In this document: in pieces, positions 7,932 to 43,375 of the stretch
How positions within the stretch are numbered: position 1 is the first letter of the stretch
Layout of the letters: every line of letters starts with the position of its first letter
Assembly (NCBI GenBank): GCA_018417955.1
Contig: JACTVC010000015.1
Coordinates: forward strand, 87,862 to 151,861
Source: Laccaria trichodermophora
Taxonomy: Eukaryota > Basidiomycota > Agaricomycetes > Agaricales > Hydnangiaceae
DNA length: 64,000 nt
Direction of reading: 5' to 3'
Program-made: the position numbers and the translations under genes
Notes under the pieces: generated by a model
Told to the model about the DNA's origin: nothing
Seen by the model: only the letters and a program-made list of their open reading frames with translations
Databases searched by the model: none

Positions 7932-9336
7932 GTTAAATCTTTGTAGCTCTGAAGGAAAGTAGAAAGCTGAACAGCACTTCTGAGGAAGGTCCGTCATGAT
8001 CTACTTCGTTTTTATAGCGGTACACGAAGAACCAAGTACTTTCTCATCCATAAATTCCGGCGATTGAGGTTCTCCAAGTGGATGAGTTTCGAGAATCGGG
8101 CTAGCCTCTTCAGATGAAAGTTGAAGTCCAAAACGCGGAGCGAACTGCCGTTGTACTAAAATAACTTCCTCCCCAAAGAATCAATGGACCAAAATTACTA
8201 GGGAGATCGTTTAACTGTAGGATAGAAAATTGCAGGTTGCATCGATTCTTAGAGACTTTAAATACAGAAACTTTATTTATTTTCTGGTAAGAACGAGAGG
8301 CGAGTTGGTGCTTTGACACGTAGCCCGAGCTTAGCTGACCTCAAGTCAATTGAAATTGGTTTCTTACGAAGAAAGCAAGGTAGATAAAATCAACGCCCAA
8401 GAGGTCCGTAGTACTTCGAGCGGTCGACTTTTGGGCGTCTGTTAATAATCAAGGCGCCTTGTGAAAGTAACTAACCGAAGTTGGTTCCTTTATTTTGAAA
8501 AACGTGCGCAAGGAAATTGCCAGTGGGTGCATATGCCACTGCGATAGGAAGTCGTACCGATGCTAGTTGCGGTACCGCTGAACTACATCCAGAGCAGCAT
8601 TACTTCCCCGCACTAAGTCAACAATAAACGACGAACGCGCATGCTCGCTAGTACTGATTAGTATAACTCTTCGACAATCCTTCGTCATGCCGAGGGCACG
8701 ATACGAACAATATCCACACCACACACGCATAGAGCAAATATAATGCTTCGAAATGCTTCCCTTCAACGCGAAGTTCGTCAACTCTCTAATTCTGGCCAAG
8801 CCTTCCATCTCACCAAATTGTGGCGTAGTGAATGCCCGTCCGACGCTTCTTATTCTGAGCGTGCAGCATGATTCTAGACGCATACGTTCACAATCCACCA
8901 GTAGTAGGCTTGTGAATAAATTTATCCAAAATGCTGTAGAAATATTGTTATTAAATACCAGGGAATGGTGAGGACTGAGGCATCCCAAAATGATACTGAC
9001 TTTCACCCCTCAATTTAACGTCGGCCACTAGAATACTGGGGGTAATTGTGGACGTCGAAACACGAGGGGGGCATACTTATACGTTTTCATCAAGTTTTCA
9101 TTTTGGGGCGAAAGAAGCGGGCATTTTTTCAAGTTTGAGATGTGCTAGAACTCGACATGCAGCGCGACTCTGGTGAGAGAAGGAGAGTTGTTTGTTGCAG
9201 AGCAATTGTGTAAGTAAGTATTCGCTCAGGTTGCGCTTGGCAGGCATCATTCAAGTTGGCCTGTTTTCGTCTAATTGCACCTGTTTAGTTTTGAGGATTC
9301 CGTCCGCTCAACAAAACACGTTTGCCAGCGACCACA
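7932..9336. other. Intergenic region between RlpA-like gene and VPS29
   Basis: It contains the RlpA-like promoter (minus side) and the VPS29 promoter (plus side). One open frame of 147 codons on the minus strand (8563-9006) matches nothing I know and has no flanking splice logic. I do not call it a gene. No repeats were seen. Confidence 0.4.
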
Positions 9337-32914: not shown

Positions 32915-33851
32915 TTAAATCACCCGCCTTCTTTTGCCCGCCTGCTTCTTCTCATCAAAATCCGGCCCCGCTTTCTTCACGACAAGACAAAGGTTTCCAT
33001 AACTGTAGCCGAGCGATGCCTCGTTGCCATAAGCGATGTAAGAAGCTTTGACGCGGGAGAACGATGCAAGAGGTGTGATCCACAAAACTTTCTTGGCTTC
33101 AATGATGCGGCTCCTACGCGTCGTCGCTGGATGTACTTTCTTCATCTGCATCACAGATCACTACCCCGCCTACACTCAATAACGCGTCCACAATTCCTTC
33201 CTCGATCTGCCAATCCGGAAACCGATCCATCTCGTCCAACATGACATGATTGATTGTGATCGTACGCCGATACTTTGTGCGCCCGTCCTCCTCAACCGCC
33301 TCGTATCCTTTTTCTGACGCTTCATATATGACCGTCAGCTTGGGATTAAGACTGAGCTGTTCCAAAACGCGTTTGATCATGGCGTCGCTGCCTTTGAGGG
33401 AGTCTATGAGGTCCTTCAGTTTAGTCCCCCCCGCTGCTATCGGGTACATAAAGTCGAGTCCAAAACCAAGATAACCGCCACCTGGGAGTACATCGGGATT
33501 CTGTAGCAAGGAGGATAGAGACTCGCGGAGAGCCGCTTCGTCTTGTTTGGTCCAGGCATTGGAGGTGACAGATGTGGTGTCGTCGAAATAAAGGTTGTAA
33601 GTCAAGGTGACACGATAGCCAGAGGTGACCATGGAAACTTCGTGCTCGACATCGCTATAAAACGCAACATAGGCGATTGACGAAATTTCTTGGGCGGAAG
33701 TTATGGCTGCAGAATCAAAGGTCCATTCCTCACCCTTGTGACGAAGATGAAGAGCTCCTCCTTCGTGGCAAGTGGGGAAAACGACGACGAGGGAGGCGAA
33801 CATGTTCTCACTGCGTGGAGTGTCCTTGTGCGCTTTGAAGAACGACCCGGG
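32915..33851 (-). pseudogene. 2OG-Fe(II) oxygenase, copy 1, 3' part (severed)
   Basis: This is the 3' two-thirds of exon 3 of the oxygenase whose 5' part lies at 42858-43375. It begins at the transposon edge with SFFKAHKDTPRSENMFASL and keeps the iron ligands (H-x-D in HKD and the distal His in DVEHEV) and the 2OG-binding GYRVTLTYNLY. Relative to the intact copy it also has a net 5-bp deletion in the Ser/Asp stretch (about 33105). This creates an early stop after SSDDA. The remaining codons (KKVLWITPLASFSR to AGPDFDE) continue in another frame. The gene is therefore disabled twice. Confidence 0.9.
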
Positions 33852-34267
33852 TATGGCAGTCCGTTTGGGTAAAAATTCCGGAAATATATACTTTTTAGCA
33901 TAAATTCAATTTGTATGCGCTTGAGTTTTGCCAATGTCCTGCGGAAGATAACTTGAGAGTGCGCAACCTTTTTTATAGTCCCCAGAAACATTTTTGTCAG
34001 CGCGGAAATGTTTGACCTCAGCGCGGAAATATATTGACCTGTGCAGAAATTTATTAACAGTGCGCGCATACTTGTTCACAGTGCGCGCAAACTTATTCAG
34101 CTGTGCTGAAGCAAATTTGTCCCCCGGAAACATTTTTTTTGCGCACAGAAACATTCATATCTGGTGCGCGGATTTTTTGCCCTCCTGCCATTTTGGGAAT
34201 GCCGTGCTGCCGTGATTAGCTAATTGATGCATTGTTGGCAGTTTCGGCATGCTGGTCGGCGTTTAAA
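33852..34267 (+). repeat. Left terminal inverted repeat of the 9-kb transposon
   Basis: It matches the reverse complement of 42451-42857 with scattered substitutions and an 8-base indel (TTGGCAG-type insert near 34240). At about 33998-34105 it contains five iterated units of about 20 bp of the form (C)AG(T/C)GCG(C/G)..AAA..TATT.A, probably transposase-binding sites. Confidence 0.95.
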
Positions 34268-34605
34268 ATTCAAATATATCGTCTTTCTAGTCTTGTTTTT
34301 ATGACATATATTTGTGAATGAAAGAAGTACAATGGTAGAGGTGCAAGAGAGAAAGTAAGCTACTCATAACTTTAACTTTGAAACTTTGATTTTGCAAAAC
34401 AAAAATGTACTTTGACGATTTCTAATCTGATTTTTCAATGGAACTTTGACGATGTACCACACTTAAAGAAATCGATAGCAATTTTATACGCTTCCACCAA
34501 ATACCTGAATACATAGAGCAAAACTGTGCAACACAATTTATAAAAGCGAATACTGATGACTGAGTAAAGAGAGATATGTGCATAATAAGAAAAGAAATTG
34601 AGTTC
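34268..34605. other. Noncoding stretch inside the transposon
   Basis: About 340 bp of AT-rich sequence between the left TIR and the 3' end of the finger-protein gene. No feature is recognised. Confidence 0.5.
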
Positions 34606-36293
34606 CTAGTCCACCTCCATCCTCCCAGCATGATCATTATTGACCTCCACCCCCACTATGGCTACTTTCTTGCTGGTGGTGTTTGTAACGCGTAGCCATG
34701 TTCCACGGCTGTCCCCTTTGATGGGTGGTCCATTATAAAGCCACTGAGCGCCTGCTGGGAGCCGGAAGACACTGATTCCATTACATTTGGAAAATGCACA
34801 TTTAAAGTAGACGGAGTTTGGAATGTCGAATTTTGGACCATCAGTAGAAAGGCGAGAGCAGACTGGGCACTGGTGCTGATATACCTGTCCGAATGGGCGA
34901 CAGCTTTGATGAACCCATATAAATGTAGTGGTGGTCGATGGTGTAATTTCTACAATGTCTGTGTGTGCACCAAGGCCTTGGTGGTCTTGTAAAATGGTTT
35001 TGAGGGTAGGACGATTGAAAATAAAATGTTGAATGCTGAGATCCATGAGAAATCGGCTACTGAAGAATGGCTGAAAATGTTCTTGAGTGAAGCCGATGAT
35101 TTTGCTGAAGAGTTTTCTGGCATATTGTGAGCTTTTCAGGTATCGAGTTTTTCTAACAAAACATACCGTTCTTGGGCGAAAACGTGCAAATAATTGTTTG
35201 ATTCCTCTGTCCGTAACAGAGCACCGCAGGACAACAAGACCAATATATTGCTGTTGTTGTCTGCACGGGTCAAAATTTCCTGGAACCTATCAGTGAAGAT
35301 GTGTCCGAAAATCTCCAAATTTGATTAGAACATATTTGAAAAGTGCTAAAAATGAAGGAATGCTCACTTCATTGATGGGAACTGCACCACCACTGTCTGG
35401 GACATGATGAACAAAGCCATTTGTTGGGTCACAGTGTGTTGCGAAAACGATTAAAAAACGTTGGAAACTATAACAATAAAAAATGAGTGATAGGAAGAAC
35501 TATACAAATCAAATAAACGTACCCTTCCAGTTCATCCTCCAGGTCACCAAGGAGGATTTCCATTGCATCCCAGAAACCAATGGAAGTTTTTTCATCTAGA
35601 AGATCAAACTCGATGTCGAAAAAGACCACATTTCCTTTCAACCAAGGTTGTAGGATTTCAAATGTAACTCTACTAGGCGTATCCCGCATTCCTTGAAGGT
35701 GAATTGAAATGACAGCAAGCCTTTCTACATTTATAACTGGCCAATTCTCTCGTATGGACGTCTTGCAAGCTAACTTGAATGGCTAATATGTTTTGAGCAT
35801 AAATTGAATATGGATATGTAATAAAAAAACTCACATATGGTTCATTGCCGTTCATTTTTCTGAAACAAGGGGGACAGTAGAAAGGAATGTCCTCACCCTC
35901 ATCTTTGAAGTCATGGTTGAGGCATGAGGTACACGCTCCTCTTTCTTCGCAACCTTGACATTGGATGACATCCCCACCGTTCACACACCCAGAGCACCAC
36001 TATAAAAATGGTATATAAATGGAAAAGGAGCAATTCAATTTAAAATTTCTCACTGCGCCTTTGGAGAGGGTCTGCCCTTCCTTAATTCGGATCCCAATTA
36101 CTTCCCTCTTTCGTTTCCGAGTTGGCTTGGAAGATTTCGATAGGACAGATTTCCGAGTGATTTTAGTGAGAGATGTAGGTGGTGCGGTTCCACCAGCAGA
36201 AGTCATGCCAACAGAGCTGACTTTGTTCTTTGTTTGAACTGATTTTCGGTGGGCATTCGGAGCAGCTGGGCGAGGAGGCATTGTGAGTTGCAT
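34606..36293 (-). CDS. Transposon-borne cysteine-rich finger protein with possible caspase/CHAT-like core
   Basis: A spliced gene. Exon 1 (MPPRPAAPNAHRKSVQTKNK, start 36281, or 36293 with MQLT in front) is Ser/Lys-rich and nuclear-looking (KPTRKRKRE). Next is a C4-type cluster, WCSGCVNGGDVIQCQGC, GACTSCLNHDFK and FYCPPCF, resembling a PHD or related zinc finger. The middle has VVFFDIEFDLLDEKTS, LIVFATHCDPTNGFVHHVPD and, after an intron, NILVLLSCGALLRTEES. The His and Cys ending two hydrophobic strands recall caspase/CHAT-fold proteases; this is a guess. The C-terminus has FIWVHQSCRPFG, QCPVCSR and YFKCAFSKCNG, a second cysteine cluster of a type I recall from repeat-associated Agaricomycete proteins. 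The role is unknown: regulator or accessory transposition factor. Confidence 0.7.
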
Positions 36294-36440
36294 TTCTCAA
36301 TAGTTCGTCGCAGTATTTAATCTTATTGTCAATTACCCAAGAAGGAAATACCATGTGATCACATGTTCATATTTGATTATTTCCACGCACTCCTCGACCA
36401 CCACCACGTTCCTCATCAACGCGCTCAGCAGCCACAGTCC

Positions 36441-36675
36441 GTGCAGCTGCCTGACCCATCTCTGGTGAGCAACACGAGTCCAGATGAAACTCGTGTTGTG
36501 CTGGAGCCCCCATATGACGGGCTCCAGCTGCCAACAGATGGTGTCGTGGCACAGTGCTGGATGCATGCAGCTGTTGGTGCGACTGCCTGACATCTCTGGT
36601 GAGCAACACAAGCCCATATGAAGCTTGTGTTGTGCTGGAGCCCCCATATGACGGGCTCCAGCTGCCAAGAGATGG
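36441..36675. repeat. Direct repeat of about 95 bp, two copies
   Basis: Copies at about 36447-36541 and 36581-36675 share TCTCTGGTGAGCAACAC, GAGCCCCCATATGACGGG and CTCCAGCTGCCAA. It lies between the finger-protein and BTB genes. It also contains small inverted arms (GGAGCCC / GGGCTCC around CCATATGAC). Confidence 0.85.
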
Positions 36676-36698
36676 AATTGTGGCATCACGACGTCTCA

Positions 36699-37089
36699 CC
36701 TCACCCAGACCACCTCCCTTGCATGCAAAAGCAAGCCGGAGGTGGTCTTCTTTTCACGTTTCGACGGCGCCTCGCCTACACCACCTCCCTCGCATGCAAG
36801 AGCGAGCCGGGGTGGTTCCATTTTCACGTTTTGACAATGCCACGCCAACACGACCTCCCTTGCATGCAAAAGCAAGCCGGAGGTGCTCTTCTTTACACAT
36901 TTCGACGATGCCTCGCCCACACTACCTCCCTTGCATGCAAGAGTGAGTTGGAGGTGGTTCCGCTTTCACGTTTTGTTTTGACGATGCCATGCCCACACCT
37001 CCCTCGGATGCAAAAGCGAGCCGGAGGTGGTATTCTCTTCACGTTTCGATGCCACCTCACCCACACCACCTCCCTCGCACGCAAAAGCT
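36699..37089. repeat. Minisatellite, about 5.5 units of 65-76 bp
   Basis: The units carry ACCTCCCT(T/C)GCATGCAA(A/G)AG, then GAG(C/T)(C/T)GGAGGTGGT and TTTTCACGTTT(C/T)GA, with several per cent divergence. The unit length (about 70) is not a multiple of three overall, and frames on both strands are accidental. It fills the spacer between two transposon genes. Confidence 0.9.
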
Positions 37090-37347
37090 TCTAACTTAAA
37101 TCCTGGGCTTGTGCCAACCATTCATGTTGTTTGGCTGTGTTACATCCTAAGCCCTCCAGCCCGCACTCTAAAAGATTTTTTTTCATGAGTTCCAGATGAT
37201 TGCTGGTGTCATCCACAGCATCTTCAATCTTAAATCATCAGCTTGACTCACCATAATTTGTTGCATGTATTTGTGGGTGTATATCCGTCTTCTCTTCGTG
37301 TTCCTGACATTTTTCCCGATGACACAACAACAAAACTAGTCTGTAAA

Positions 37348-38407
37348 TCAAAAGAACATCTCATGTACAGTAGCGATTGCCTGCTGAATCAAATCCTCCT
37401 CTTTGCAAATAAGACTAGAAAATTTCAGCTGAATCCACTCGAGAACATACTTCTTGCATTCAGGATTCATCCCACGATGCTCCATGTTCTCCAGCGTCTC
37501 TGGGATTAAGATCATCGGAAAATTTTCAGAGGGGTGATGAATGCTTCGGCCAAGCACCAGGAACCATTTCTCATACCATACCTTTTTGCAGGCTGTGTGT
37601 TGAAGGCAAAAAGGGGTGATGTCAGAGTCGTTTGGGAAGGGAGGGTGATGTGCAAGGCGCTTTCTTGCTGTAGCAATGGATTCCTTTGTAGTAGCGATAA
37701 TCATATAAAGGGAGAAGTCCAAATTGGTTTCATTTGTCTCAGTATAACGCTCGAGAGGAGTGTTCAGCAGCATGCGGATAGGGATCTCAATCCAGTCTCG
37801 GAGACTATACTGCCGGGCCAGCTTGAGGCGATGAACTGGGTGAAGTGATTGCTTCGCGAGTTGTGAGGTAGCAAACTTCACACCTTGCTCCATTTGCCAC
37901 ATGTGCGATATGTGGAGAATGTTGAGCAATTGCTCTGTATGCTCTGTTTTCAGTGGCTCTAACGCGCTATGTCCGACCACAAATCAAATCAGTATGAAAC
38001 TATACAAGAAGGAAGGTAGACAGACGTATGATTAAACCAATCCATAAAATCCTCAAATGCTTTAGCGGTTAATCCTTCAATGATGATGGGATATCTTCGG
38101 GACCCTTCACGATTGTCTGTTCCGGGGTCTTGTGTTCCACCTAGGTTTCGATCGGAAAGCATGTCTCCCAAAAATGGGGAATGGCGGGACAATTTTGAAG
38201 AATCTAGGATAAATCCTTTTCCTTCAACCTAGAGTTGAGTCAGGACTGGTCTTGATTATTAAATGAAAAAATATTCCGTACTGAGAACACAACCTCATAC
38301 ACTGGTAGAGCGTACTTGGGATGGAAGGAAAATGTCTGTTGACTGTTTGACGGGAGCATGGCGATATCAGTGGATGGAGATACATCGGGTGATCCAGGTG
38401 TAGTCAT
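37348..38407 (-). CDS. Transposon-borne BTB/POZ-domain protein
   Basis: The start at 38407 gives MTTPGSPDVSPSTDIAML, then TFSFHPKYALPVYEVVFSV. After an intron come VEGKGFILDSSKLSRHSPF and LGDMLSDRNLGG, the beta-strand/helix core of a BTB fold. Then IIIEGLTAKAFEDFMDWF and HTEQLLNILHISHMWQMEQG (the typical helix pair). The rest is a helical C-terminal region (LHPVHRLKLARQYSLRDWI, CKEEDLIQQAIATVHEMFF) ending at 37348. BTB proteins mediate dimerisation and cullin or transcription-factor contacts. Stand-alone BTB genes of this type are abundant in mushrooms. It is divergent from the transposase with only 125 bp between start codons, so the two are probably co-regulated. The reading frame is open. 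Confidence 0.8.
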
Positions 38408-38532
38408 GTCAGCTGATGAGAATGTAACTTGATTGGGGGAGAAAGAGAGGTTCTTCTGGGTCTTTGAGCGGTGATATCAGGTATATATATACAAATCGTT
38501 ATCGCTCACACCAAATTGACACATCAACGGTC
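38408..38532. promoter_or_regulatory. Shared divergent promoter, BTB gene / transposase
   Basis: 125 bp separate the two start codons. A TATA-like run (GTATATATATAC, about 38480-38491) sits about 45 bp upstream of the transposase ATG. It is nearly palindromic and could serve either direction. Confidence 0.5.
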
Positions 38533-40734
38533 ATGCCTCTCTCCCCTCTTCCACAGTCTCAAACCCCATGGTCAATTGCTGTTCAGAATGCGTATCAGAC
38601 ACTGTACCAGATCTACCACACCGGATCTTCTTACATTGAAACAGGGAGCGTTGAGACCCACCGTCTCCAGCAATATGGAAATACAATCATCACGGAAGCA
38701 TACCCGATGGTCCTTTTGTTGACTGAGTCAGCAGAATCTGAATTGCTACCCCTTGAATGGATCGAGCAAGTTTCTACTGAATTTACCTCACTACTGGAAG
38801 TCATCCAGGAATATTGGACATCGGCAAAAGATGAGTATGTAATGAGCAGCATGCAAGAGGTTCCTTAATTTGAACCAAATCTTTTTCAGATTAGCAGCTA
38901 ATGTTATGGTCCATGACCATATCTATTCAATACGCAGTGGGAAATGTGGCCGACCAAAAAAATTTGTTGATACGAAGGTTCTTCATGATGCTTTCCAGAA
39001 AGGAAGGCGAATACCAACCACAGTTCTTGCTGCTGCTTTGGGTATCAATCGGAAGACTCTACAAGCACGATTACAGGAAACAGATATTAATTTCAGGTAT
39101 GATGAAATAGCTGATGAGGAACTGGATGCCTTGGTTCGGAAATATTACCAGGAGAACCCTACTGGTGGGCGTGCTTATATGATTGGTCGCCTGCGGGCCG
39201 CACATGCCTTGCGTATTCAACGCCACCGTGTCATGGCCTCTATGAAGCGTGTTGATCGGCTGGGACAAGCCTTGCGGCAACATGTTGGTAAAAAAAAGGA
39301 ACGAACTCGCTATCAAGTTCCTCGACCGAATGCCCTTTGGCACATTGATGGACACCATAAGCTGATTGCATGGGGAATTGTTTTCCACGGTGTTGCTGAT
39401 GGATATACACATAAAGTGTGTCTACTTATTCTCGGACATGATCGAGTTGATTACATATGAGTAGGCTGCTGGACTCCATGCAAATACAAATAACAGGGCT
39501 GAAACAGTTCTTGACATGTTTATTGATGCAATTCTGGAACATGGCGTCCCATCACGGGTGCGTGGTGATCGAGGAGGAGAAAACAGGGATGTCTCAATTC
39601 TTATGATCTTGCTGCGTGGGCTCAACCGTGCCAGCTTCATGTGGGGTCCTTCGGTGTTTAATACCCGCATTGAGCGCCTGTGGGTTGAGGTTGGGAAGCG
39701 ATTTGTGCGTCAGTGGCGTGCCTTCTTCACCCGACTGGAGAGATGTCATCTGTTAGAGAGGATGAATCCGCATCATCGCTGGCTCCTACATTATTTATTC
39801 CTTGACATGATTAATGAAGATTGTCAAAAATTCTGTGAAGAATGGAACAATCATCCTATTTCTGGAGTAGGAGGAGGACGGTCTCCAAATGTATGTAATT
39901 TGATTACGCCTCATGGAACACTTGATTCTATTATTGTGTTAGGAACTCGCACTTTTGGGAGAATTAAAACATGGTGTTTATGACGATTGTGAGGGTCTTT
40001 CAGAGGAAGAAGTTTATGCATTCTATGATTTCGAAGATGACAATGGGCTACAAGATGAAAGCCCTGATTCATCAGATGACGAATGGGATGGCAGTGTTGA
40101 TGAGGACACACTGGGAGCTGAAGATGGGGTAGATGATCTTTGTTTTGATTTTACCGAAACTAACTCATGGATAGGTGGACATGCAAGTCGACGATCTGTC
40201 TGAGGAAGGATCAGATGGTGAAGAATATTCAGAGGAGGATGAACCAGGATCTGGGGATGACGTAACTGATCTGCTTTATTAATTGTAATAAACTGACTTG
40301 TTGGAAGGTCAACATGCAAGTAGATGAACAACGGTCCAAAGTTCCCAGTGGTTCGGATTATGACTTTGATATGGAGGTCTGTACCATGTTGAATTATGGA
40401 CGTAAAGCTGAGTGGAATGCAGGGAATCGATTCCAATATTCGACATGAGGCTATCCCTGTTCCACCTGGAGATTGCCCATTTGATCAGGACACACTGATT
40501 GTGTTTGGACATGGTCTCAAGATATTGACTGAGGGTGGCGAGCTTCCTAGTGGTTATGGAGTTATGCTGGATGAATTAAACGGAAATGCATTCAATGAAC
40601 AGGAGAAGATTAATATCGGACGGAACAGGGCCGAACATGCAATTGTCCTTCCAAGTGAAATTTGGAAACCTCGATCTGAGTTATGGGCACAAGGACTGTA
40701 CGCAATGACCAGTATTTTGTCTTTATCGCTTTGA
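38533..40734 (+). CDS. Integrase-core (DDE) transposase
   Basis: Starts MPLSPLPQSQTPWSIAVQNA. A helical N-terminal region is followed by a GRPKK/AT-hook-like patch and a helix-turn-helix (IPTTVLAAALGINRKTLQAR). The rve-type catalytic core has its first Asp in LWHIDGHHKLI (about 39345) and its second in VRGDRGGEN (about 39567). The Glu is in FNTRIERLWVEVGKRF, with 34 residues between second Asp and Glu. Then come RWRAFFTRLE-like and EEWNNHPISGVGGGRSPN blocks. Introns at about 38834-38889 and 39416-39470 keep frame. A further intron (about 39893-39941) leads to ELALLGELKHGVYDD, an acidic linker and a last exon (NIRHEAIPVPPGDCPFDQD to LPSEIWKPRSELWAQGLYA). All catalytic residues are present, so it may be active. 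Exon joins in the acidic part (40.1-40.4 kb) are uncertain. Confidence 0.85.
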
Positions 40735-40869
40735 TTTACATCTTTACCAACCACCATTCACCATGTTGTCACATTATTTATAAACTGGGGAATTGCATAG
40801 CAGTCCCACATCAACTACTCTCCCCATTCCTTTGCCACATCGTTTCTCTACCTTCTCTCTGCTCTTCCA

Positions 40870-42276
40870 ATGTCTCGTCGTTCCTCTAAGGGGAAACGAA
40901 AGGCTAGCCCACCAGCTTCTCTTTCCTCTGATGAGGACGATCCACAGGATGTTCCGGAAGAACGCCATCTATCCAAAAAGCGTCGGGTCAATTCTCCAGC
41001 ACGTGTCAAACAGGCAGCATTGTCCAGGGTTGCAAGCACATCTATGTCAGGCGCCTCATCAAAGAAGGGTTTGGCAGGTTTCGCTGCACTGATCAATAGC
41101 ACCAGCCTGGCTGCAGCCCGCAAGGAGACGAATCGAGGCCTTCGTTCTGGTAGCTCTTCCACCAAACAGTCTCGTAATGGAGGTTCCTCATCCAAGGCAG
41201 GAAATACAGTACGAATTTTATATTTATCTATGTCCAAAAATCTCACTTATGTTTTTTCTGTAGGATGACATCTTTGCTGTTGGAACGATTGTGTTCCTTG
41301 TGGTTGGTGTTACATCAGTAAGTTGTATATTTATTTTCGCTCACACATTGCCATCTAATTTATACAATTACCTAGAATACAGCAGCAGAAGAGCGCTCAG
41401 CTTCGTTCCATCCAGTATACCGTCTCCAGGATGATGTTGACATCTCTGCCATTGCGCTTACTGGTATGAAGCAATCGGGACTTTGCGTGATGAAAGGCTC
41501 CAGTGGGTTTGAATTTCATCCTGACGACAAGTACTCGGTCCTCGATGAGAAACTTCGGAATCACTTTCCCAAGCTATTCGACTGGATGTGCGAATCAGAC
41601 ACATTCGACACCATCAATTCTTCCTGGCTGGTTTGTATGAAGCCTCCTCGAAAATCACTCATCGTCTATTCTGATGACCGATTGCCAACCGGTTCCGATA
41701 TTATTACTGCCTGTCAGCTTGCAAAGAGCAAGGTTAGCGTCTCAAACCGTATACTTTATCTTGGTAAGTCTTTCTCTTTCACTAGCATGCTCACCGCAGT
41801 TGATTTACAACGTGATTCTAGTCACATGCAATCCAGTTCCTAGTGCGACACTCAAGACTTGGAGACCATCCATCTCAGCTTTACATCAGGCCTCTGATAT
41901 TGACGACCATAGCTCCAATGAAACACACTCCAGGATCTCTAGCCCATCGTATAGTCCAGTGTCTCTTCCCCGCACCCAGCGATCTTTGCGACATCGACGA
42001 CTCCGAGATAGGAGTGAAGAGGTGGAGCAGGATGTCATCAGCATCTCCAGTGTATCTGGTACGAAAATCAATTGCTGTGTTTTATTTATAACTTAACTGT
42101 CTACCTCTTGTGCAGATACTGAATCGTCAGTGCCAGGGGTAACCGTCCCAGCCCCTGCCAACAAAGCCGCTACTCCACCATGTGTCGAAGCTATTCAGGA
42201 CTCCTTCTTCTCATCTATCAATTTTGATGAAGGGGAAAACCCTTGGATTCCTTACGACTCAAATACTGCTGCCTAA
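40870..42276 (+). CDS. Transposon-borne Ser-rich basic protein, unknown function
   Basis: The start ATG at 40870 gives MSRRSSKGKRKASPPASLSS, then DEDDPQDVPEERHLSKKRRV. This is a bipartite basic patch that looks like a nuclear localisation signal in a disordered region. Exons after about 41264 give DDIFAVGTIVFLVVGVTS, FHPVYRLQDDVDISAIAL, LRNHFPKLFDWMCES, SSWLVCMKPPRKSLIVYSDD and LPTGSDIITACQLAKSKV, an apparently folded domain. A Ser/Arg-rich tail ends near GENPWIPYDSNTAA and stops at 42276. I recognise no family. Its position next to the transposase on the same strand suggests a part in transposition, perhaps as a partner or DNA-binding subunit. All introns found keep the frame open. Confidence 0.65.
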
Positions 42277-42450
42277 TTACACCACCACATGACGATTACA
42301 CTCCATTCTTTTTTAATCACACCTTACTTCCCACTATGATACATTCATTTTGCATCAAAATATAATGTTGATCACACATTTAAAATAAGACTTCGTCTGA
42401 TAACAAGGGATATTCAATTAAATTATAAAATTTAGGAGTTCTAATTTGAA

Positions 42451-42857
42451 GTTTAAACTCCGACCGACATGCCGAAATGCATCAATTAGCTAATCACGGC
42501 AGCACGGCATTCCCAAAATGGCAGGAGGGCAAAAAATCCGCGCACCAGACATGAATGTTTCTGCGCGCAAATAAAATGTTTCCGGGGGTCAATTTTGTTT
42601 CAGCGCAGCTGAATAAGTCTGCGCGCACTGTGAACAAGTTTGCGCGCACTGTCAATAAATTTCTGCACAGGTCAATATATTTCCGCGCTGAGGTCAAACA
42701 TTTCCGCGCTGACAAAAATGTTTCCGGGGACTATAAAAAAAGTTGCGCACCCTCAAGTTATCTTCCGCTGGACATTAGCAAAACTCAAGCGCATACAAAT
42801 TGAATTTATGCTAAAAAGTATATATTTCCGGAATTTTTACCCAAACGGACCGCCATA
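42451..42857 (-). repeat. Right terminal inverted repeat of the 9-kb transposon
   Basis: Reverse complement of 33852-34267, including the iterated GCGCGC-(A)AA motifs (about 42600-42710). It ends GGACCGCCATA against the CCCGGG target duplication. 42277-42450 between the last gene and this repeat is AT-rich and featureless. Confidence 0.95.
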
Positions 42858-43375
42858 CCCGGGACCTGCAGATGCGGTTGTTAGCTCTTTATCCCCTGAA
42901 TTCTTTCCAATCACGCTCACCGTAGACGTTCAGTTTATAGATCTCCGAACGAACTTTTCTCTCCGTATTTTGCACGAGCTTGGCGCAAACGTGGTCCAAG
43001 ATTCCTGCATCGACGACATCAAGACGCGTCAAGAAATTTGAGCTATCCATCTTCCATGCTTTCCGATAGGTTTCATCCAGAACGTCTTTGTTGTCCAGGC
43101 CGAAAGCGGCTCGCTCGCAGGCTCCGACCAATGTTTCGAGTTTGAGACCATCCGCGTTGGCGAGATCTATATATTGCGCGCTATCAAAAGGAAAAACGAG
43201 AGTTTTAGTCGGATAAGCCGAATGAGCCGGAGGGATCGTCTTACCCCTCGCCGCCGTCAGTGAGAAAAAAAAGCTGTCCACCGTTGTCGGTCAAAGGGTA
43301 GGTACCAGTGCAGAAGGGTTGCTCCTTTTTGATAGCGTCACGAACAGCGGAAAGCTCGGAGGGGACGGTGGACAT
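42858..43375 (-). pseudogene. 2OG-Fe(II) oxygenase, copy 1, 5' part (severed)
   Basis: Start codon at 43375 (MSTVPSELSAVRDAIKKEQP). Exon 1 continues CTGTYPLTDNGGQLFFLTD. After an intron, exon 2 gives SAQYIDLANADGLKLETLVG and ACERAAFGLDNKDVLDETYR, then WKMDSSNFLTRLDVVDAGI and NTERKVRSEIYKLNVYG. A GTGAGC donor follows, and the next exon begins GTCCCGGG. After eight bases of that exon the 9-kb transposon interrupts it, and the rest is at 32915-33851. It is about 90 per cent like the intact copy at 53.3-54.7 kb. The promoter side is also shared with that copy up to about 43560. Confidence 0.9.

What the first reader, a model, noticed from the sequence alone, without database searches (positions are those of the whole stretch)
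33852..42857. A 9-kb TIR transposon carrying a transposase and three cargo genes
Seen: inverted ends of about 410 bp, CCCGGG on both sides, and four spliced open genes in two divergent pairs. The transposase has D-D-E residues of the integrase core with 34 residues between the second D and the E. Known: most cut-and-paste elements carry only a transposase. A fixed set including a BTB protein, a cysteine-rich finger protein and a basic nuclear-type protein is unusual. Inference: the cargo may be accessory transposition factors or host-manipulating regulators, and the group may be a new lineage of IS3EU-like elements.
Basis: partly seen in the sequence, partly recalled or inferred. Interest (0 to 1): 0.88.

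Follow-up and report, generated by a model that had tools for sequence, protein, structure and literature searches.

The report
Mushroom transposon with conserved partner genes
This is a 9-kb jumping gene of a mushroom-type fungus that fits a known group (IS3EU) but keeps two conserved partner genes beside its transposase and also carries a gene that looks like a zinc finger joined to a caspase-like fold, which hints that such elements bring their own tools for dealing with the host nucleus.

Summary
Window 33852-42857 is a DNA transposon with ~420-bp inverted repeats ending TATGG..CCATA and a 6-bp CCCGGG duplication. It interrupts a host 2OG-oxygenase gene. The transposase is a 635-aa DD34E integrase (PF24764). 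Termini, duplication length and lack of an HHCC motif match IS3EU, where I file it; no tree was made. In this genome 19 places match the transposase family; 16 have a related BTB-like gene within 3 kb, always divergent. A homologue of the basic protein follows in 7 of 8 such loci read. These three genes evolve under constraint (dN/dS about 0.21) and recur in a second, distant family with its own TIRs and 6-bp duplications, so they are a conserved core, not accidental cargo. It joins a PHD-like finger to a domain that Foldseek ranks with caspases and MALT1, with conserved His and Cys where clan CD has them; that model is of low confidence. Functions of the partners are inferred.

The parts
33846..33851 (.). 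target site duplication, left copy (CCCGGG)
33852..34275 (+). left terminal inverted repeat, starts TATGGCAGTCCG; holds GYGCRC motifs, some at about 20-23 bp spacing
34606..36281 (-). gene 1: PHD-like finger plus caspase/CHAT-like (clan CD) domain protein, 469 aa; exons 36281-36054, 35999-35835, 35782-35523, 35467-35368, 35312-35167, 35116-34606
   Evidence: spliced model checked against Hebeloma and Laccaria homologues, 40-41% identity; fold search; PHD hint
36440..37095 (.). array of DNA hairpins between gene 1 and the BTB-like gene (two 95-bp units, then 5.5 copies of a 71-bp unit)
   Evidence: only this place in the genome matched
37348..38407 (-). gene 2: BTB-like protein, 315 aa; exons 38407-38282, 38228-38026, 37966-37348
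   Evidence: homologues
38408..38532 (.). 125 bp between the start codons of the divergent BTB-like gene and transposase; presumed shared promoter region
   Evidence: coordinates; promoter function inferred
38533..40734 (+). gene 3: DD34E transposase, 635 aa, PF24764; exons 38533-38834, 38890-39415, 39465-39890, 39943-40128, 40175-40261, 40308-40376, 40423-40734; catalytic D 39347, D 39567, E 39672 (first base of codon)
40870..42276 (+). gene 4: basic protein, 392 aa, with a conserved central domain and a C-terminal SUMO-interaction-like motif; exons 40870-41208, 41264-41317, 41376-41763, 41822-42058, 42116-42276
42444..42857 (-). right terminal inverted repeat, ends GCCATA
42858..42863 (.). 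target site duplication, right copy (CCCGGG)
33117..33851 (-). host gene, downstream part (2OG-Fe(II) oxygenase, PF13640)
42858..43290 (-). host gene, upstream part: exon, a likely intron (read by eye) that begins GTGAGC and ends CAG, then GTCCCGGG

Best explanation
An apparently intact cut-and-paste DNA transposon of the IS3EU kind. Shown: TA..TA ends, long inverted repeats with repeated GC-rich motifs, 6-bp target duplications, a DD34E integrase-type transposase, and a three-gene core (transposase, divergent BTB-like gene, third gene) that is under purifying selection and recurs in separate families. Inferred: the transposase binds the repeated motifs through its N-terminal region, cuts at the TA ends and joins them to target DNA with a 6-bp stagger. 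The BTB-like protein, whose gene starts 125 bp from the transposase gene, would pair or bridge transposase-bound ends or attach the complex to host chromatin or ubiquitin machinery. The basic third protein would bind DNA or SUMO-marked nuclear proteins. The optional PHD-caspase-like protein would act on chromatin-bound host factors, most plausibly silencing factors, as is proposed for the TET/JBP genes of other fungal transposons.
For: TIRs and duplication; the host frame closes with one CCCGGG. Own-genome searches: 19 places with the transposase family in both a protein and a Pfam search (lower bounds), 16 with a divergent BTB-like gene within 3 kb; 17 BTB-type places in all, the 17th beside a gene 1 homologue. 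dN/dS against L011: BTB-like 0.205 and gene 4 0.216, its central domain 0.087, transposase exons 1-5 0.213; no stop or frameshift in the parts compared. Second family with the same core: 4 copies, TATGGC..GCCATA ends and perfect 6-bp duplications in 3. Gene 4 homology across families: hhalign E 1.7e-10 (L037) and 4.1e-7 (L038). Both families carry GYGCRC motifs in their TIRs. IS3EU definition: PMC10045372 (passages), PMC12730594.
Against: No Repbase sequence or tree was available, so IS3EU membership rests on structure and Pfam family. No expression, excision or transposition data. BTB is below Pfam's cut-off; the gene 4 fold is unresolved (pLDDT 52.5, no PDB match below E 0.001). Three of nine copies with both ends show no duplication: L011, the 29-kb C4 pair, and the C4 copy of family 2. 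One of the eight loci read (L039) shows no gene 4. Gene 4 of L037 and L038 was not found by the plain protein search, and L038's begins with a cysteine-rich stretch where the window's has a basic one. The GYGCRC pattern was chosen after looking at the sequences.
Confidence: 0.72

Rival explanations
1. The partner genes are host genes picked up by chance and carried passively; only the transposase matters.
For: Gene 1 is absent from the three closest relatives, and gene 1-like pieces occur at five further places where no core gene was detected in the DNA held. Fungal transposons are said to have received TET/JBP genes passively (PMC12730594 section 4.1).
Against: For the BTB-like gene and gene 4: conserved order and orientation across distant families, and dN/dS of about 0.21.
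Confidence: 0.12
2. The partner proteins act mainly on the host (relief of silencing, nuclear import, ubiquitin or SUMO pathways) and not in the transposition reaction.
For: BTB-like fold hints towards KBTBD4 and SKP1, a recurrent SUMO-interaction-like motif in gene 4, a PHD-like finger and a caspase-like domain in gene 1. TET/JBP in fungal transposons is proposed to counter silencing (PMC12730594 abstract).
Against: All are weak sequence or fold hints; a tight divergent pair with the transposase would also fit a direct partner.
Confidence: 0.4
3. Gene 1's central domain is an ordinary Rossmann-like or inactive domain, not a clan CD protease.
For: Mean pLDDT is 47.8 with only three sequences in the alignment. 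The Foldseek matches have low TM-scores (0.19-0.27 by query in the top 15) and rmsd of 6-22. VIA-align also lists flavin reductases, a polyketide synthase part and glutamate receptor domains at similar Z, most of it in the range said to be common for unrelated folds.
Against: Foldseek's 15 matches below E 0.001 are all MALT1 or caspase-1. The conserved His is the last residue of strand 216-224 and the conserved Cys directly follows strand 267-272, as in clan CD (clan rule recalled), and both are kept in 4 of 4 proteins.
Confidence: 0.35
4. The whole is a domesticated host locus, no longer a transposon.
For: The searches showed no second full-length copy with gene 1 in this genome.
Against: It interrupts a host exon with a perfect duplication and intact TIRs, and non-autonomous copies with TIR parts 88-100% identical exist.
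Confidence: 0.03

Closest known systems
IS3EU / GingerRoot superfamily (PMC10045372, passages; fungal IS3EU in PMC12730594, abstract, passages and sections 3.1 and 4.1)
   Same: TA..TA termini (rust ones TAYGG..CCRTA), TIRs longer than 30 bp, 6-bp duplications, integrase-type DDE transposase without HHCC motif, extra genes in the rust elements
   Different: The TET-bearing IS3EU families in that paper carry an alpha-kinase and a TET/JBP gene; no Pfam match to either was seen among the four proteins here. BTB and PHD do not occur in that paper's main text (0 each).
Kolobok elements with accessory proteins (PMC9587614, passages)
   Same: DDE transposon lineages each with its own accessory gene
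   Different: Another superfamily; the accessories are nucleases, helicase and KolX
Harbinger/Nuwa two-protein elements (as described in PMC12730594)
   Same: transposase plus a separate partner protein
   Different: their partner has a Myb/SANT domain and their duplication is 3 bp; here a BTB-like protein and 6 bp
KDZ elements with TET/JBP (PMC12730594)
   Same: multigene transposons of basidiomycetes
   Different: 8-bp duplications, another transposase

Membership tests
IS3EU | TA..TA termini, fungal TAYGG..CCRTA | tested here: met
   TATGG..CCATA in 8 of 9 copies with both ends (EL, L009, L010, L011, C4 29-kb pair, C28, C1, C25); the C4 copy of family 2 has one end changed to TAGGG
IS3EU | usually 6-bp target site duplication | tested here: met
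   perfect in 5 of 9 copies with both ends (EL, L010, C28, C1, C25), 5 of 6 bases in L009, none in 3 (L011, C4 29 kb, C4 family 2); L012 lacks its right end
IS3EU | DDE integrase-type transposase | tested here: met
   PF24764 at 3.4e-59, rve below cut-off; DD34E. That PF24764 holds IS3EU transposases is recalled.
IS3EU | no HHCC zinc motif before the core | tested here: met
   by eye in the sequence: a single Cys before residue 254
IS3EU | falls in the IS3EU/GingerRoot clade | not tested
   no Repbase or published transposase sequences were at hand
Ginger1 | 4-bp duplication | tested here: not met
   6-bp duplications; definition
KDZ | 8-bp duplication | tested here: not met
   as above; 8 bp is given for a Dileera element
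BTB/POZ domain (gene 2) | Pfam PF00651 above curated cut-off | tested here: not met
   17.3 bits against 20.5, E 0.0056, profile positions 12-109 of 110; 1 of 6 aligned relatives matches even at E 3; hence 'BTB-like'
BTB/POZ fold (gene 2) | profile match to solved BTB-fold proteins | tested here: inconclusive
   best PDB profile matches are KBTBD4 and SKP1 at E 0.006-0.008 over the N-terminal third; fusicoccadiene synthase matches another part at 0.035, and led an earlier, mostly N-truncated profile at 0.001
Clan CD cysteine peptidase (gene 1) | caspase-hemoglobinase fold | tested here: inconclusive
   15 Foldseek matches under 0.001, all MALT1 or caspase-1, with low TM-scores; model pLDDT 47.8; mixed VIA-align list; no peptidase match in sequence-profile searches
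Clan CD cysteine peptidase (gene 1) | His after the third core strand, Cys after the fourth | tested here: inconclusive
   H224 and C273 of P0029 in these positions of the low-confidence model, conserved in 4 of 4 proteins; the rule is recalled
Clan CD cysteine peptidase (gene 1) | proteolytic activity | not testable with these tools
   needs an enzyme assay
PHD finger (gene 1) | Pfam or structure-profile match | tested here: inconclusive
   CHD4 PHD finger at E 0.01, no Pfam PHD match; four C-x2-C pairs conserved in 4 of 4

The most novel reading that the evidence does not exclude
A eukaryotic DNA transposon lineage runs a multi-protein transposition system: transposase plus an obligate BTB-like partner and a SUMO-binding basic protein, with an optional chromatin-targeted caspase-like protease that cuts host silencing factors at the element. 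It would be the first transposon-borne caspase-fold enzyme aimed at chromatin known to me.
Probability: 0.22. Interest if true: 0.86.

Novelty: new variant of a known kind. Interest (0 to 1): 0.6.

Why it matters
Many DNA transposons are described by their transposase alone. A BTB-like gene that stays beside the transposase, divergent in 16 of 16 cases, even in families whose BTB-like protein is only about 25% identical to the window's, suggests that transposition of this lineage needs, or gains from, a partner. This makes a testable multi-protein system. If gene 1 is a chromatin-directed protease, it would be a second kind of counter-silencing tool next to the TET/JBP enzymes known from fungal transposons. 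It also means that some 'BTB' and 'hypothetical' genes in mushroom genomes may be transposon parts.

Tried and rejected
Transposase-only relatives as the norm: rejected (16 of 19 places have the BTB-like gene; the C56 match is marginal, E 7.8e-4). Fixed four-gene set: rejected, gene 1 is not detected in L010-L012. Ginger1 and KDZ by duplication length: rejected. Alpha-kinase or TET/JBP among the four proteins: no Pfam match. TIR dating was not done, since TIRs need not be identical at insertion.

Led nowhere: PDB fold search for gene 4 (best E 0.096); viral contigs (0 confirmed); NCBIfam on four homologues; the search for TIRs around L035, L037 and L039 (none found), so their element borders are unknown; a hairpin counter gave 4 in the window's array region against a shuffle mean of 1.0 and maximum of 3, and nothing clear in the relatives. 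PF00651 over the genome gave 22 matches, none at the transposase places, which weakens the BTB name. The SUMO-interaction-like motif occurs by chance in 459 of 2000 shuffles of the window protein; it is of the DVISIS type in 13 of 37 gene 4 sequences scanned. Many of the rest are partial, but at least P0041, P0054 and P0064 are long and lack it. Gene 1-like loci L023-L027 showed no core gene within the DNA held.
Full report
What is there. The window lies in a 59-Mb genome of 77 contigs. Between CCCGGG at 33846-33851 and 42858-42863 lies an element of 9,006 bp. Its ends are inverted repeats: 388 nt ungapped at 96%, or 430 alignment columns at 93%. Because CCCGGG is a palindrome, the duplication alone is ambiguous. 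Relatives settle it: L010 has TGGGGT on both sides, and copies of a second family have GGTTGT, CAAATC and GTGGGA on both sides (the last read by eye). The element begins TATGG and ends CCATA. On the minus strand the host frame reads through the site when one CCCGGG is kept: the exon before a likely intron ends KLNVY, and the sequence goes on as GPGSFFKAHKD (intron placed by eye). The downstream part is a 2OG-Fe(II) oxygenase (PF13640, 5.5e-7). So the element broke a host gene. One search found 14 further TIR matches at 8 places.

Genes. Gene models were made with a small splice-aware predictor and corrected against relatives. Leftward: gene 1 (469 aa) and gene 2 (315 aa). Rightward: transposase (635 aa, seven exons) and gene 4 (392 aa). 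Genes 2 and 3 start back to back with 125 bp between.

How general is the gene set? I searched the genome with each protein and with the Pfam profile of the transposase. Both transposase lists give the same 19 places; the tool calls such counts lower bounds. Sixteen of the 19 have a homologue of gene 2 within 3 kb, on the opposite strand and pointing away, 16 of 16; the weakest is C56 (E 7.8e-4). They are not all independent: four belong to this element's family and four to a second family, so at most about ten families stand behind the 16. The three without it are a pair of near-identical loci (L028, L029) and a short fragment on C67. There are 17 places of gene 2 type in all; the 17th, on C34, has a gene 1 homologue downstream in the same orientation as in the window. 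Both genes there hold stops.

Of the transposase/BTB loci I held the DNA of eight: EL, L010, L011, L012, L035, L037, L038, L039. Gene 4 is present in seven of the eight, broken by a stop in L035 and not found in L039. In L037 and L038 it is too distant for the plain search but holds up in profile comparison: probability 96.9%, E 1.7e-10, and 92.8%, E 4.1e-7. A direct BLASTP of EL and L037 gives 2e-9, and L038 matches a Pisolithus homologue at 3e-16. L038's version begins with a cysteine-rich stretch in place of the basic one. For the other eight loci gene 4 was not read, though DNA alignment to L038 runs through most of it in C28, C1 and C25. Gene 1 was detected in one of the eight, the window's own.

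The second family (L038 and copies on C28, C1, C25) has a transposase at about 46% and 59-60% identity over two stretches and a BTB-like protein at 25%. Three of its four copies end TATGGC..GCCATA and have perfect 6-bp duplications; the C4 copy has a changed right end and none. Both families carry GYGCRC motifs in the TIR: 7 positions (5 separate sites) in the 409-bp left end of EL and 5 positions (3 sites) in 147 bp of L038, against shuffle means of 0.24 and 0.11 and maxima of 3. The pattern was chosen after looking. Several sites are spaced about 20-23 bp, two helical turns. I read these as transposase-binding sites (inference).

Selection. Against L011, an 86%-identical relative without stops or frameshifts in the parts compared, dN/dS is 0.205 for gene 2, 0.216 for gene 4 and 0.087 for gene 4's central domain, and 0.213 for transposase exons 1-5. 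Gene 4's first exon alone is less constrained (0.512). L010 has one stop in the transposase; L012 has three stops and a 689-bp insertion in the transposase, two stops and a 7-base loss in gene 2 and one stop in gene 4. The counts leave out gapped and stop codons, and the three relatives are close to each other, so this is nearly one comparison. Still, the two partner genes have been kept about as strictly as the transposase.

Genes 2 and 4. Gene 2 reaches 17.3 bits for BTB, below the cut-off of 20.5. A profile of its family finds KBTBD4 and SKP1, both of BTB fold, at E 0.006-0.008. The genome's Pfam-level BTB matches, 22 of them, lie elsewhere. One relative is named BTB domain-containing by UniRef. 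Gene 4 has a basic, serine-rich first exon (23 K/R, 8 D/E, 25 S in 113), a conserved domain without known fold, and a DVISIS-type motif in an acidic setting that resembles a SUMO-interaction motif, present in 13 of 37 sequences scanned, many of them partial. Shuffles give some such motif in 459 of 2000 cases, so one instance means little; its recurrence, also in a Pisolithus homologue 20% identical to its alignment's first member, is the argument.

Outside this genome. Contig lengths in the listings suggest linkage: Hebeloma cylindrosporum proteins for gene 2 (P0004), gene 1 (P0029) and gene 4 (P0035) all carry longest contig 445,499 bp, and a metagenome contig of 4,929 bp carries gene 2 and gene 4 (P0002, P0037). 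I could not read these contigs.

Comparison with what is known. IS3EU is defined by TA..TA termini and usually 6-bp duplications (PMC10045372, passages). Rust members end TAYGG..CCRTA, and the TET-bearing families carry TET/JBP and alpha-kinase genes (PMC12730594: abstract, passages, sections 3.1 and 4.1). The window's element meets the four IS3EU features tested; the tree test is missing. The partner genes found here are different. Searches for print: IS3EU (30 of 32 listed), IS3EU with alpha-kinase (44), BTB with transposon terms (45), IS3EU with accessory (55), KDZ (58, 10 of 15 listed), GingerRoot (59), caspase with transposon terms (76, 15 of 137 listed), BTB with IS3EU (77). In these listings I saw no paper that announces BTB-like, basic or caspase-like genes inside IS3EU; apart from the three papers named with passages I saw listings only. 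Repbase and supplementary files were not searched, so the elements themselves may already be listed.

Mechanism, with steps marked. Shown: ends, duplication, the D-D-E residues in the sequence, conserved partners, constraint. Inferred: cut-and-paste with a 6-bp stagger; a BTB-like partner that multimerises or links the complex to host machinery; a basic, possibly SUMO-binding third protein; and a gene 1 product that reads chromatin and may cut host factors. Copies without a detected transposase but with TIR parts 88-100% identical to the window's (L009, and the C4 pair, which seems to have taken in retrotransposons) suggest movement in trans.

Verdict. A new variant of a known kind. The conserved partner genes are the solid part; the caspase-like, PHD-like gene is the most surprising and the least certain.

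Noticed in passing
window 36440-37095: Array of strong DNA hairpins between gene 1 and gene 2: two 95-bp units (fold z about -6) and 5.5 copies of a 71-bp unit; only this place in the genome matched. It sits upstream of gene 1.
   Followed up: partly
L011 1-954 and 8103-9056 (C36:176593-185648): The flanks of this copy are also perfect inverted repeats for 500 bp beyond the element, as far as the DNA held, so no duplication is visible; an assembly fold-back or a larger palindrome.
   Followed up: no
L009 (C15:821651-829200) and C4:394134-423148: Elements with TIR parts 88-100% identical to the window's but no detected transposase, filled in part by multicopy repeats and, on C4, by what look like LTR retrotransposons.
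   Followed up: partly
C19:137722-138854, C3:499510-500561, C1:837095-838166, C11:245312-246183, C23:236293-237336: Paired 66-111-bp TIR matches of the second family about 0.9-1.1 kb apart: likely short non-autonomous copies.
   Followed up: no
L038 about 8567-9251 (C4): A roughly 680-bp repeat inserted in this copy but not in its three relatives, with at least ten similar places in the genome.
   Followed up: no
L028 and L029 (C1:1747000-1756999, C15:494500-504499): A near-identical pair of loci with a related integrase and no detected BTB-like gene; upstream predicted exons encode a large unknown protein. Perhaps a separate lineage.
   Followed up: partly
L035 28-926 and L030: Predicted proteins that I took for another large mushroom transposon family (from memory), next to two of the loci.
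   Followed up: no
window 33117-33851 and 42858-43290: A host 2OG-Fe(II) oxygenase gene is interrupted by the element, a natural knock-out in this genome copy.
   Followed up: partly
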